Shown here: positions 14,513-22,020 of the stretch, piece after piece
Numbering within the stretch: position 1 is the first letter of the stretch
Layout of the letters: each line of letters starts with the position of its first letter
Source of the DNA: Ruminococcus sp.
Lineage (GTDB): Bacteria > Bacillota > Clostridia > Oscillospirales > Ruminococcaceae
Length of the DNA: 64,000 bases
Direction: 5' to 3'
Assembly: GCA_021200415.1 (NCBI GenBank)
Contig: JAJQGO010000041.1
Location: 1 to 64,000 of the forward strand
Position numbers and translations under genes: made by a program
Notes under the pieces: model-generated
The model's input: the letters and a program-made list of their open reading frames with translations, nothing else
Databases searched by the model: none
What the model was told of the DNA's origin: nothing

Positions 14513-15726
14513 TAAATCTACAGAAAACCGAAAAAACAGTCAGGCTGTATGTCGAAAAGCTTATTCTGCCCTCCGAGCCGCTCTATCCCCTGTGGAACAA
14601 CGAGAACCGCATCTTCTCCAAGGGCGGCAAATGGAACTATATAGATGCCTGCATGATTAAATCCACAGGTATGCTGTATGAGCTTTACGGCGACGAGCGG
14701 CTGCTCAATTACGCTGTACGCTTCACTGATTCCTATGTTCGGGAGGACGGCACGATTCCCTCAATGAATCCCCTTGACTACAATCTCGACAACATAAACG
14801 GCGCGAAAAATCTCATGTACCTCTTCAAAAAAACAGGCAGAGAAAAATATCGTCGGGCATTTGAGCTGATATACAGCAGTCAGCTTCTCAGTCAGCCGAG
14901 GCTTAGCTGCGGAAGCTTCTTTCACAAGGCAATTTATCCATATCAGATCTGGCTTGACGGAACATACATGGTGCTGCCTTTTCTTGCGGAATATGCGGAC
15001 TTTTCGGGCGATACCCGTATTTATGCGGATATTGAAAATCAAATTGAAAATATAGTCCGCATTATGCGTGATGAAAAGTCGGGGCTGTACAAGCATGGCT
15101 ATGACGAATCCCGAACAATGCACTGGGCGGACAGTCAGACAGGTCTTTCCGGAGAATTCTGGCTGCGCGCTATGGGATGGTTCTGCGCGGCGCTTGCTGA
15201 TTTATGCGGGCTTGCCGAAAACGTGCCGACTCTTTACGCCACCTGCCGCCGCACCTTAGATGAGCTGCTTCATGCCCTTTCCAAATGCATATATACGGAC
15301 AATATGCTGTATCAGCTCCCCTCAAAGCCTGAAATCAGGGGGAATTATCCCGAAACAAGCGGAACTCTCCTCTTTTCCTATGCCGCCCTTAAAGCGTACA
15401 GACTGGGAATATGCGATGAAAAAATAAAAGCCGACGGTGTAAGAACATTGTCGGCTGTGACCGAAAGCTTCATTGAACTAAGGGACAATGAAATTCCGAT
15501 TATGAAAAATATTTGTCTTGTTGCGGGTCTGGGCGGAAAAACAAGGCGCAGCGGAACTGCCGGATACTATTTGGGCGAACCGACTGTTGAAAATGACGCA
15601 AAGGGAATTGCCCCGTATCTTATGGCCTTTACGGAGCTGAAAAGATTATCGCTCAATGAGGGTAACGGCTCGTCCAAGCTTTCTCCCGAAGCTGCCGCCT
15701 ATGAGCAGCAAAAAAATCACGTTTGA
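14509..15726 (+). CDS. GH105-like unsaturated rhamnogalacturonyl hydrolase (GH88/105 clan)
   Basis: WNYIDACMIKSTGMLYELYGD, HKAIYPYQIWLDGTYMVLPFLAEYA, TQTGLSGEFWLRAMGWFCAALAD, ETSGTLLFSYAALKAY motifs; cotranscribed with sugar ABC genes. Confidence 0.88.
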   Translation: MINLQKTEKTVRLYVEKLILPSEPLYPLWNNENRIFSKGGKWNYIDACMIKSTGMLYELYGDERLLNYAVRFTDSYVREDGTIPSMNPLDYNLDNINGAKNLMYLFKKTGREKYRRAFELIYSSQLLSQPRLSCGSFFHKAIYPYQIWLDGTYMVLPFLAEYADFSGDTRIYADIENQIENIVRIMRDEKSGLYKHGYDESRTMHWADSQTGLSGEFWLRAMGWFCAALADLCGLAENVPTLYATCRRTLDELLHALSKCIYTDNMLYQLPSKPEIRGNYPETSGTLLFSYAALKAYRLGICDEKIKADGVRTLSAVTESFIELRDNEIPIMKNICLVAGLGGKTRRSGTAGYYLGEPTVENDAKGIAPYLMAFTELKRLSLNEGNGSSKLSPEAAAYEQQKNHV

Positions 15727-16320
15727 AACGGCATACGTCACCGTAAACGGAATTGCCGTAATCAGGGCGGCTTTGTAAAGTCCTAAGTCAAAGCCCTCGT
15801 TGTACCAGAGAACCGTCCATATATCCATAACCCATGAATAAAAGACTCCTGTCAGCGCACCGAAAGCAAGCAGCAGGAGTCTGCTTTTTTTCAGCTGATT
15901 TGCGAAAACACCTGCCATAAGCCCTATCATTCCCCATGCAAGCATCTGAAAGGGCGTCCATACGCCATGACCGAAATACATATTCGAGATAAGCGCCGTC
16001 AGCGCCCCTGTCAGGAATCCCCCTTCAGCCGTCAGGTACATTCCGCTGAGTATGACTATTGCGGTAATCGGCTTGAACGCAGGCAGCGGTGCGAAAATAA
16101 ATCTCCCAACTATGGAAAGGGCAGTCATAACCGCCACAAGGACAGCGTATCGTGAGGTCAGCTCACGCCGCTCAAAGGCAAATGCAAATCCTACGCAGGC
16201 GGCTGCGGCAACAAGCAGTGAAATTATGGTGTAGTGGCTTTCCCTGAACATATATGCTCCCGCCAGAACAAGAAGAACTGCCGCAGTCGGAGCGGCGGCT
16301 CTTTTAAGCGTTGCTTTCAT
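15646..16320 (-). CDS. ECF transporter S component, CbrT-like (predicted cobalamin)
   Basis: About 6 TM segments; RFIFAPLPAFKPITAIVILSGMYLTAEGGFLTGALTALISNMYFGHGVWTPFQMLAWGMIGLMAG resembles CbrT-type S components; next to EcfA and EcfT genes. Confidence 0.8.
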   Translation of the reverse strand: MKATLKRAAAPTAAVLLVLAGAYMFRESHYTIISLLVAAAACVGFAFAFERRELTSRYAVLVAVMTALSIVGRFIFAPLPAFKPITAIVILSGMYLTAEGGFLTGALTALISNMYFGHGVWTPFQMLAWGMIGLMAGVFANQLKKSRLLLLAFGALTGVFYSWVMDIWTVLWYNEGFDLGLYKAALITAIPFTVTYAVSNVIFLLLIGGSFGRKLGRAVTLIER

Positions 16321-17950
16321 GGAACTCCTCCTTCAAGCCATTTCTGTAGCAGATTTCCAAAAGCTGCTCCGCCGTGCAGATGCCGCTGTAGATTCCCCGT
16401 GAAGCCTTAACCGCACCTGTCGTATAGAACATACTGCCGCAAAACAGCTCCTCGGGACTGCCGCAGGCGGAAATAACGCCATCAAAGAAAATTCCGCACC
16501 TGTCGGAAATCATTGCGGCAAGCTCCGTGTCGTGAGTTACGGTGAAAACGGTGATTTTTCTGCTCAGGAGGGATTTTATAACATCTGCGATTACATTGCG
16601 CCAGCTCCCGTCAAGTCCCTTTGTAGGCTCGTCCAGAAGGATAATTCTCGGATTCGTCATAAGCAGCTTTTTTATGCCGAGAAGCTGCTGCTGACCGCCG
16701 CTCAGGTCATATGGGTGCATATCGTAAAGGGGCTTGAAATCGTAAATCTCGCTGTCCTCGGCAAAGCCAAGCTCCTCCCCTACGCTGTCCCGAAGAAAGC
16801 TGCTCTGAACGTCCTGCGGAAGATAAGCAAGCAGACCGTTGTACAGCTCCGTGTCGCTGTATTTTTTTATAGGTCTTCCCTCGATCTCAATTTTCCCCCT
16901 GTAGGGCTTTTCGATTCCCGCTGTCAGGGAAAGAAGAGTGCTTTTGCCGCTGCCGTTGCTGCCGAGAAGCGTAAACGCCTCGCCGCTTTTCACCTCAATT
17001 GAAGCTCCGCATACAACATCGGGCTTGGCACGATCGTAGGTGAAATATACATTTTTCAGCCGTATTGCCGTTTCGCCGAAGGATTTTTCCTGCTTCGGCT
17101 CAAGGGCGGCAGCGCTTCTCCCGAAACTGCCCTCAAGCATATTCCTGCTCTCGCCGAGAGTCAGCGGCGGACGTTTTTCCGCAAGCTCGTCAAAGGCGCT
17201 CCAAATGCGCAGTCCCATCGGAAGAGACGGACTTATATCCGCGCAGGACGCAAGGATTTCCGCCGCATTTTCAGGTGTATCGAAAACAGAAGTCCTCCCC
17301 TTTTCCAGCAGCAGAACCTTATCCGCCAAGGGCAGAAGCTCATCGAAACGATGCTCCGCAATTATGACAGTCACCGCAAGCTCCCGTGTTATGCGGTAAA
17401 GCGTCCTGATGAAGCTGCCTGCGGCTATCGGGTCAAGCTGAGCTGTAGGCTCGTCAAGAATTATAAGGCGCGGTCCCACCGCCATAACGGACGCAAGATT
17501 CAGAAGCTGCCTCTGACCTCCCGAAAGCAGAGCTGTTTTTTGGTCAAGAAGCTGCTCCAGTCCGAAATACGCGGCCGCTTCGGCGACCTGACGGCAAATG
17601 GTATTCTGCGGAAGTCCAAGACTTTCCCCGCCAAAGGCAAGCTCCCCGCGAACGCTGTCGGTAACGGTCTGATTTTCAGGACGCTGCATGACATAGCCTA
17701 TCTGCGCTGCCGAAACCGATTCCGGTACATTTTCCAGCAGCTCGCCGCAGAAGCTTATACTGCCGCTTTTTTCACCGTAGGGCGCAAGCTCCGGCTTCAG
17801 GCTCTTCAGAAGCGTCGTCTTTCCGCACGCCGTAGCTCCGCAGACAAGCACCAGTTCCCCCTCCGAAGCCTCAAATGAAACGCTGCGGAGAGTTTCATCG
17901 CTGCTGTTTTTATATCTGAACGAAAAATTATCTGCCTCAATTATTTTCAT
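16304..17950 (-). CDS. ECF transporter ATPase, fused double ABC domain (EcfA-EcfA')
   Basis: Two Walker A (GATACGKTTL, GSNGSGKST), two signature motifs (LSGGQRQLL, LSGGQQQLL), two Walker B (LIILDEPTAQLD, IILLDEPTKGLD); ATG 17950 has an AGGAG RBS. Confidence 0.93.
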   Translation of the reverse strand: MKIIEADNFSFRYKNSSDETLRSVSFEASEGELVLVCGATACGKTTLLKSLKPELAPYGEKSGSISFCGELLENVPESVSAAQIGYVMQRPENQTVTDSVRGELAFGGESLGLPQNTICRQVAEAAAYFGLEQLLDQKTALLSGGQRQLLNLASVMAVGPRLIILDEPTAQLDPIAAGSFIRTLYRITRELAVTVIIAEHRFDELLPLADKVLLLEKGRTSVFDTPENAAEILASCADISPSLPMGLRIWSAFDELAEKRPPLTLGESRNMLEGSFGRSAAALEPKQEKSFGETAIRLKNVYFTYDRAKPDVVCGASIEVKSGEAFTLLGSNGSGKSTLLSLTAGIEKPYRGKIEIEGRPIKKYSDTELYNGLLAYLPQDVQSSFLRDSVGEELGFAEDSEIYDFKPLYDMHPYDLSGGQQQLLGIKKLLMTNPRIILLDEPTKGLDGSWRNVIADVIKSLLSRKITVFTVTHDTELAAMISDRCGIFFDGVISACGSPEELFCGSMFYTTGAVKASRGIYSGICTAEQLLEICYRNGLKEEFHESNA

Positions 17951-21772: not shown

Positions 21773-21844
21773 TGTAAAAACTTCCTTTCGCATAATTTCG
21801 GATACAATAAATCAGAGCTATAACTTTGGAAAAAATGTAAAGCG

Positions 21845-22020
21845 GTTACACTCTTCTGATGCCCAAAAGTGTTATAGCAAGGTTTACTATAAACCGATTC
21901 CGCCGCATAGATAAATTTACGGCGGGAGCGTTCAGGCATTCCGACTTATGTGACACGCACAAATACGATAATGGCTGTTGCGGCAGATTCTCACTGCACT
22001 TCCCCTGTAGCGCTCATTAT
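21845..22020 (-). promoter_or_regulatory. Cobalamin-riboswitch-like leader with expression platform
   Basis: Minus strand reads GAGCGCTACAGGGGAAGTGCAGTGAGAATCTGCCGCAACAGCC ... CATAAGTCGGAATGCCTGAACGCTC, matching the cobalamin aptamer layout (AGGGAA-nnn-GGTG-nn-AATC / B12-box-like / AAGTCnGnATnCCTG) with a GAGCG/CGCTC closing helix; followed by CCGCCG...CGGCGG, GGTTTA...TAAACC and ACACTYTT...AAGAGTGT hairpins. Confidence 0.75.

What the first reader, a model, noticed from the sequence alone, without database searches (positions are those of the whole stretch)
15646..22020. Candidate cellulosome-linked cobalamin capture and import system (riboswitch + dockerin-DUF4430 + tethered transcobalamin-like protein + ECF-CbrT)
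Seen directly: a compact minus-strand operon of five genes. Adjacent coding regions overlap, except for a 15-nt gap after the first gene. It begins with a cobalamin-riboswitch-like leader and encodes (1) a secreted DUF4430-type domain with a C-terminal dockerin-like module, (2) a membrane-tethered protein with a prenyltransferase-like alpha-repeat domain plus DUF4430, (3) EcfT, (4) a fused double EcfA, and (5) a CbrT-like S component. Established knowledge: animal intrinsic factor/transcobalamin consist of an alpha6/alpha6 barrel plus a beta domain related to DUF4430, and CbrT-type ECF S components transport cobalamin. Inference: the surface proteins act as bacterial intrinsic-factor analogues. 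One would be displayed on the cellulosome and hand corrinoids to the membrane-tethered receptor and then to the ECF transporter. I am not aware of a described cellulosome-borne vitamin receptor, but I could not search for one.
Basis: partly seen in the sequence, partly recalled or inferred. Interest (0 to 1): 0.88.

Follow-up and report, generated by a model that had tools for sequence, protein, structure and literature searches.

The report
Dockerin-tethered vitamin B12 uptake operon
A fibre-degrading gut Ruminococcus that apparently cannot make vitamin B12 carries a B12-controlled operon for a B12 importer plus two surface proteins built like our own B12 carriers, one of which seems to be pinned to the cell by the docking module normally used by cellulose-degrading enzymes; this importer type was predicted in 2007, the docking attachment appears new.

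Summary
The five minus-strand genes are at the stated places. They follow a near-perfect promoter and a diverged cobalamin aptamer, below Rfam's cut-off but the best AdoCbl-II match in the genome. Orthologous leaders in 25 of 39 relatives carry cobalamin aptamers. The S component is closest to CbrT of ECF-CbrT (6fnp, profile E 1.9e-16). Both surface proteins fold like the beta domain of transcobalamin, intrinsic factor and haptocorrin; gene 2 also has the N-terminal toroid. The host has MetH but no MetE or CbiC, so it probably needs imported B12.

The cassette is widespread. The secreted first gene keeps its first two domains, but its surface anchor varies: mostly a sortase signal, with the dockerin label changing at least four times on the tree. 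The window's dockerin resembles ScaH and CttA dockerins, which bind the wall-anchored scaffoldin ScaE. It is therefore probably a wall tether replacing a sortase signal, not a seat among the cellulases.

Burroughs et al. (2007) had predicted transcobalamin-like surface proteins in CbiO/CbiQ operons as B12 scavengers. New here: the dockerin tether and its repeated exchange, the riboswitch link and the CbrT assignment. Corrinoid binding, hand-over and cohesin binding are inferred, not shown.

The parts
22022..22050 (-). Promoter TTGACA-17-TAAAAT with TG before the second hexamer
   Evidence: Best sigma-70-type match of the region (11 of 12), 6 nt before the aptamer; the same arrangement stands before the aptamer in L013, L014, L015, L019, L021, L030 and others
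21926..22015 (-). Diverged cobalamin aptamer (AdoCbl-II-like)
   Evidence: RF01689 23.5 bits, E 0.0038, below the gathering score; best match of the genome; closing helix complete in 8 leaders with eight different sequences
21843..21896 (-). Conserved hairpin element after the aptamer, perhaps the P13-like kissing-loop hairpin of the expression platform
   Evidence: ACTTTYGGGY...RRAGTR found in 8 of 60 leaders, the DUF4430-type clade only; role inferred
20789..21772 (-). P1: secreted protein (327 aa), DUF4430/transcobalamin beta domain + X-module/CarboxypepD-like domain + dockerin
   Evidence: Pfam, AlphaFold model pLDDT 87.5, Foldseek to haptocorrin-CNCbl and TC beta domain
21353..21667 (-). 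P1 beta-grasp (DUF4430) domain with beta-hairpin insert after the helix
   Evidence: DSSP order E36-44 E49-58 H65-75 E81-86 E89-95 E108-113 E132-138
20858..21019 (-). P1 dockerin, DAVDAS type
   Evidence: Dockerin_1 29.8 bits; ScaH dockerin 8.8e-12 by profile
18800..20773 (-). P2: membrane-tethered transcobalamin-like protein
   Evidence: Pfam; model pLDDT 79; Foldseek to transcobalamin, haptocorrin and intrinsic factor
19859..20674 (-). P2 alpha/alpha toroid (residues 34-305)
19235..19375 (-). P2 transmembrane hairpin (467-513) with a basic loop between the helices, so that toroid and beta domain both lie outside
   Evidence: helices in the model; loop sequence ARKQFSWKR; topology inferred
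18845..19075 (-). P2 DUF4430 beta domain
   Evidence: 77.2 bits, E 2.5e-21
17937..18803 (-). EcfT
   Evidence: orthologues pass Pfam CbiQ
16304..17950 (-). EcfA-EcfA fused ATPase
   Evidence: TIGR04520 1.3e-80, below its full-length cut-off; both sets of ATPase motifs
15646..16320 (-). CbrT-like S component
   Evidence: 6fnp_A 2.3e-8 single sequence, 1.9e-16 by profile, next S component 2.3e-4

Best explanation
This is a cobalamin-controlled corrinoid uptake operon of a B12-dependent Ruminococcus. P1, a secreted transcobalamin-beta-like protein, is held on the cell wall by its dockerin, most likely through the single cohesin of a sortase-anchored ScaE-like scaffoldin. There it would catch corrinoids or raise their local concentration. 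P2, a membrane-tethered protein with the toroid and beta domain of transcobalamin, would take the corrinoid and pass it to the CbrT-like S component, which the dedicated EcfT and fused EcfA drive. In most relatives P1 is held by a sortase signal instead. Shown by sequence or model: operon, aptamer, folds, CbrT kinship, anchor exchange, auxotrophy genes. Inferred: corrinoid binding by P1 and P2, hand-over, and the cohesin partner.
For: Riboswitch: orthologous leaders carry a cobalamin aptamer 24-508 nt before the P1-slot gene in 25 of 39 relatives, several over gathering (RF00174 76.7 bits in L037; RF01689 37.5 in L016, 52.4 in L066). S component: CbrT of ECF-CbrT is far ahead of any other solved S component. 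Folds: P1 top hits are haptocorrin-CNCbl and the TC beta domain with and without CNCbl; P2 matches TC, HC and IF across both domains. Host: MetH-like protein present, MetE and CbiC absent at 99.5% completeness. Tether: P1-slot orthologues keep the first two domains (hhalign 99.2%) while the tail is sortase-like in 35 of 50 labelled rows; the dockerin label changes at least 4 times. P1 dockerin: 47-56% identical to nine DA[IV]DAS dockerins of the genome and related to the XDoc beside the ScaE-like gene, unlike the DISDAV type. By profile ScaH 8.8e-12, CttA XDoc 7e-4, enzyme group I 0.66. ScaH and CttA dockerins bind ScaE, which is LPXTG-anchored (PMC5301203). The P1-slot protein of L055 itself carries a ScaE-type cohesin.
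Against: The window's aptamer is below Rfam's cut-off. I found no binding data for any bacterial DUF4430 protein. The Gly-Arg pair of group-4 dockerins is Ala-Val in P1. The genome of L047, which has a dockerin-type P1, has no Pfam cohesin match, so some of these dockerins may not bind cohesins. P2's toroid is as close to terpene cyclases as to transcobalamin. 14 of 39 relatives gave no Rfam match directly upstream of the P1 slot (two of them, L020 and L043, have RF00174 before a rearranged operon). In L019, L021 and L030 only EcfT follows P2, without EcfA or S nearby.
Confidence: 0.72

Rival explanations
1. Same B12 uptake system, but P1 is built into the primary, enzyme-bearing cellulosome scaffoldin, so that corrinoid is caught among the cellulases.
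For: P1 has a genuine dockerin, and the genome has a six-cohesin scaffoldin and 42 dockerin matches.
Against: P1's dockerin is of the DA[IV]DAS type found next to the ScaE-like anchor, not of the DISDAV type; nearest known dockerins bind ScaE; orthologues use a wall anchor in the same place.
Confidence: 0.15
2. The operon imports corrinoids by EcfT/EcfA/CbrT alone; P1 and P2 do not bind corrinoid but do another surface task, such as binding polysaccharide, a corrinoid-carrying protein or another cell.
For: CbrT of Lactobacillus delbrueckii works as ECF-CbrT without such partners (PMC5997447); the toroid also resembles terpene cyclases; no binding assay exists.
Against: P1-slot gene, P2 and transporter stay together across dozens of species, and both surface proteins have the transcobalamin-clade beta-hairpin insert; CbrT kinship, riboswitch and folds all point to the same ligand.
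Confidence: 0.15
3. The transporter is for another vitamin such as riboflavin or folate, as the Pfam and NCBIfam names of the S component suggest.
For: S scores to ECF-ribofla_trS 3.6e-10 and weakly to TIGR04518 folate.
Against: Cobalamin aptamers in the leaders, CbrT as nearest solved S component by twelve orders of magnitude, transcobalamin folds.
Confidence: 0.03

Closest known systems
Transcobalamin-like SLBB surface proteins in CbiO/CbiQ operons of low-GC Gram-positives (Burroughs et al. 2007, PMC1796856)
   Same: Secreted beta-grasp proteins, toroid fusion, a second paralogous surface protein in the operon, EcfA/EcfT genes, predicted B12 scavenging, some with the Gram-positive anchor motif
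   Different: That paper mentions no dockerin, cellulosome or riboswitch; here the tether is a dockerin, the S component is CbrT-like, the leader is a cobalamin aptamer, and P2 has a transmembrane hairpin between toroid and beta domain
ECF-CbrT of Lactobacillus delbrueckii (PMC5997447, 6fnp)
   Same: CbrT-family S component with an ECF module
   Different: There CbrT shares a general ECF module; here a dedicated EcfT, a fused double EcfA and two surface proteins lie in one operon
Human transcobalamin, intrinsic factor, haptocorrin
   Same: N-terminal alpha/alpha toroid and C-terminal beta domain in P2; beta domain alone in P1
   Different: P2 is held in the membrane, with a long disordered linker; P1 has no toroid; sequence identity about 10-20%
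ScaE-binding dockerins of R. flavefaciens: ScaH, CttA XDoc (8ajy, 4iu2; PMC5301203)
   Same: Two symmetric calcium repeats, preceding X-module-like domain, closest sequences in the PDB
   Different: Gly-Arg recognition pair replaced by Ala-Val; cargo is a vitamin-type receptor
BtuG-type surface lipoproteins of Bacteroides (PMC6143338, seen in the abstract only)
   Same: Surface capture of B12 before import
   Different: Different fold and envelope; outer-membrane TonB-dependent transport (from general knowledge)

Membership tests
AdoCbl-II riboswitch RF01689 | Score at or above the gathering cut-off 36.5 | tested here: not met
   23.5 bits for the window; orthologous leaders L016, L017, L031, L058, L066, L080 pass. 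Filed only as a diverged cobalamin-type aptamer
AdoCbl-II riboswitch RF01689 | Conserved aptamer helices and core | tested here: met
   Alignment to model positions 1-81; closing helix 5/5 and P2 4/4 paired with compensating changes in 8 leaders
AdoCbl-II riboswitch RF01689 | Binds adenosylcobalamin | not testable with these tools
   needs in-line probing
CbrT family of ECF S components | Closest S component is CbrT | tested here: met
   6fnp_A 1.9e-16, next 4hzu_S 2.3e-4; only solved S components were compared
CbrT family of ECF S components | Transports cobalamin | not testable with these tools
   needs uptake assay
[quoted passage not shown]
   Order of elements in both models; definition from PMC1796856; TC beta domain TMt 0.75-0.78 for P1
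[quoted passage not shown]
   needs ITC
Group-4 (ScaE-binding) dockerins | Two symmetric calcium-binding repeats | tested here: met
   NGDNVVDAVDAS / NYDAAVDAVDAS
Group-4 (ScaE-binding) dockerins | Gly-Arg pair at the recognition positions | tested here: not met
   Ala-Val in both repeats (alignment with ScaH dockerin). Filed as ScaH/CttA-like, not as group 4
Group-4 (ScaE-binding) dockerins | Binds ScaE cohesin | not testable with these tools
   host has a single-cohesin protein with a sortase signal, L095:752-1696

The most novel reading that the evidence does not exclude
The cohesin-dockerin network of cellulosome-forming bacteria doubles as a general docking port for nutrient receptors: corrinoid-binding proteins have repeatedly exchanged a sortase anchor for a dockerin (and in one case joined a ScaE-type cohesin), so that vitamin capture is physically part of the same surface assembly as fibre degradation.
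Probability: 0.4. Interest if true: 0.75.

Novelty: new variant of a known kind. Interest (0 to 1): 0.6.

Why it matters
If true, the cohesin-dockerin system is not only for carbohydrate enzymes but also a plug-in display for vitamin capture. B12-dependent fibre degraders of the gut and rumen would compete for corrinoids with a bacterial counterpart of intrinsic factor, and the animal B12 carriers would have living bacterial relatives in a testable transport operon. The natural pairs of sortase-anchored and dockerin-anchored orthologues make the tether hypothesis directly testable.

Tried and rejected
Rfam at gathering thresholds on the window: no match. RF00174 in the own genome: none. Riboflavin or folate specificity from family names: rejected on CbrT profile and leaders. 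Sequence searches of P1 and P2 against the PDB did not show transcobalamin; only the fold comparison did. The hairpin after the aptamer was first taken for a second, unknown RNA element; a P13-like kissing-loop role is the more ordinary reading and was not tested. Papers: dockerin + cobalamin + riboswitch gave none; DUF4430 in six papers, none on bacterial B12 uptake by title and abstract; a vitamin B12/dockerin search gave a medium recipe and general rumen surveys in the papers opened. A first MAFFT alignment of the aptamers put the closing helix out of register; it was checked by hand instead. NZ_KK211348 is not in the annotated collections.
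Full report
Observation. Pfam finds DUF4430 and Dockerin_1 in P1, a prenyltransferase-type toroid and DUF4430 in P2, two ABC domains in the fused ATPase and an ECF S-component family in the last gene. EcfT is below the CbiQ cut-off in the window, but six of seven orthologues pass it. The host genome, 2.35 Mb in 64 contigs and 99.5% complete, has these two DUF4430 matches only.

Leader. No Rfam family reaches its gathering score in the window. With relaxed thresholds the leader aligns to AdoCbl-II from first to last model position, 23.5 bits, and it is the best AdoCbl-II match in the genome, E 0.005 against 0.66 for the next. It stands 6 nt after the best promoter match of the region. 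In eight related leaders the closing helix is complete in each, with a different sequence in each, and the P2 helix also shows compensating changes. Over 39 relatives, whole-genome searches with RF00174 and RF01689 placed an aptamer 24 to 508 nt before the P1-slot gene in 25; in L020 and L043, where EcfT-EcfA-S stands first, RF00174 lies before EcfT. L014, L019 and L030 have a clear aptamer by alignment that the Rfam searches missed. The weak score of the window is thus divergence, not absence. By score it is not filed as RF01689.

Transporter. A profile of 31 S components from the loci matches CbrT of ECF-CbrT (6fnp; identity of the entry from PMC5997447) with E 1.9e-16; the next solved S component is at 2.3e-4. 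The Pfam label riboflavin is a superfamily label here.

Surface proteins. P1 models well (pLDDT 87.5). Its first domain has the order strand-strand-helix-hairpin-strands that Burroughs et al. give for the transcobalamin clade (PMC1796856), and its best fold matches are haptocorrin with CNCbl, the transcobalamin beta domain, TC:CD320 and intrinsic factor; the dockerin matches ScaH. P2 (pLDDT 79) has a toroid, a disordered linker, two transmembrane helices with a basic loop between them, and a beta domain. Its matches are terpene cyclases for the toroid and rat and bovine transcobalamin, haptocorrin and intrinsic factor across both domains. The domain order is that of transcobalamin with a membrane hairpin put into the linker. 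P1 and P2 beta domains are related to each other (hhalign 98.7%).

Relatives. A profile search of GTDB genomes brought 80 loci, mostly Ruminococcus and Oscillospiraceae. These loci were selected by P2, so P2 itself is no evidence; but EcfT, EcfA and S follow P2 in this order in 58 of them, with several others cut by a contig end or rearranged, and a secreted P1-slot gene precedes it in nearly all loci with enough sequence. In L019, L021 and L030 only EcfT follows. In the more distant loci the P1-slot protein has a domain that Pfam does not name but that is homologous to P1 over the first two domains (hhalign 99.2%). Its C-terminus varies: PKTGD-type sortase signals in most; dockerins in the window, L013, L014, L015, L044, L047, L052, L054 and L055; cell-wall-binding-type repeats in L039; no clear anchor in L061, L066, L078 and others. 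The sortase, repeat and no-anchor labels were read by eye from the C-termini. On a tree of P2 the dockerin label needs four changes, and well-supported branches force four. L052 is not on that tree.

Which cohesin. The genome has ten cohesin matches, including a six-cohesin protein, and 42 dockerin matches. One 314-aa protein has a single cohesin and a sortase signal, as ScaE does, and its neighbour ends in an X-module-type dockerin with an insertion, as ScaB and CttA do. The genome's dockerins fall mainly into two types: DA[IV]DAS in both repeats, with P1 and the neighbour of the ScaE-like gene, and DISDAVAILSY...DGLSNMDAL. The P1-clade profile matches the ScaH dockerin at 8.8e-12, CttA XDoc at 7e-4 and an enzyme group-I dockerin at 0.66. 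In R. flavefaciens the ScaH and CttA dockerins bind ScaE, which is sortase-anchored (PMC5301203). The Gly-Arg recognition pair is missing in P1, so group-4 membership is not claimed. In L055 the P1-slot protein carries a ScaE-type cohesin of its own (2e-21), a single case from a metagenome assembly. In the genome of L047 no Pfam cohesin was found, a warning that some dockerins may have another partner.

Need for B12. The host has one clear B12-binding protein, MetH-like, no MetE family match and no CbiC. Import would be needed for methionine synthesis.

Known and new. Burroughs et al. predicted in 2007 that toroid and transcobalamin-like surface proteins encoded with CbiO and CbiQ scavenge B12 in low-GC Gram-positives, and noted Gram-positive anchors and paired paralogues. 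Their text has no dockerin, cellulosome or riboswitch. ECF-CbrT was characterised in 2018 (PMC5997447). I found no paper on a dockerin-borne vitamin receptor, within an open-access library only. The finding is therefore a new variant of a predicted kind: the attachment device is new, the pathway is not. The steps from capture to hand-over remain inference.

Noticed in passing
L055:8436-9995 (+): P1-slot protein of a R. flavefaciens assembly is ScaE-type cohesin + DUF4430-like + X-like domain + dockerin, that is, an adaptor scaffoldin with a vitamin-receptor-type domain.
   Followed up: partly
window 21843-21896 (-), and 21817-21824: Hairpin CACTTTTGGGCATCAGAAGAGTG conserved after the aptamer in the DUF4430-type clade, and a distant GCTATAAC/GTTATAGC complementarity; perhaps P13 and expression platform.
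   Followed up: partly
L013, leader upstream of P1 (locus about 7900-8050): A stretch with terminal inverted repeats TTAGGGTGTGTTGACACTAA is inserted in the leader between hairpin and start, like a small mobile element, while GTTATAGC is kept.
   Followed up: no
whole host genome G000: Dockerins fall mainly into a DA[IV]DAS type and a DISDAV type, which suggests two cohesin specificities; the identity of the other DA[IV]DAS proteins was not examined.
   Followed up: partly
L047, L052, L054 P1-slot genes: The DUF4430-like plus CarboxypepD-like pair is duplicated within one protein, with a different dockerin type (DAT.IQ).
   Followed up: no
L039:7731-9959: P1-slot protein ends in GKKYYFGKDG-type cell-wall-binding repeats, a third kind of surface tether, and has two DUF4430-like copies.
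   Followed up: no
L019, L021, L030: EcfT follows P2 but no EcfA or S component lies nearby, so these relatives may share an ECF module encoded elsewhere.
   Followed up: no
window 14509-15726 (+) and 15646-16320 (-): A convergent plus-strand ORF that looks like an unsaturated-glycuronyl hydrolase overlaps the end of the S component gene by 81 nt.
   Followed up: no
window 36931-37713 (-) and 40432-43308 (-): Two further dockerin-bearing ORFs in the window (one search places C5:36964-37131 and C5:42832-42966).
   Followed up: no
genomes of L017, L018, L041, L055, L058, L080 and others: A strong RF00174 cobalamin riboswitch lies elsewhere in the genome, away from this cassette, so these relatives have further B12-controlled genes.
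   Followed up: no
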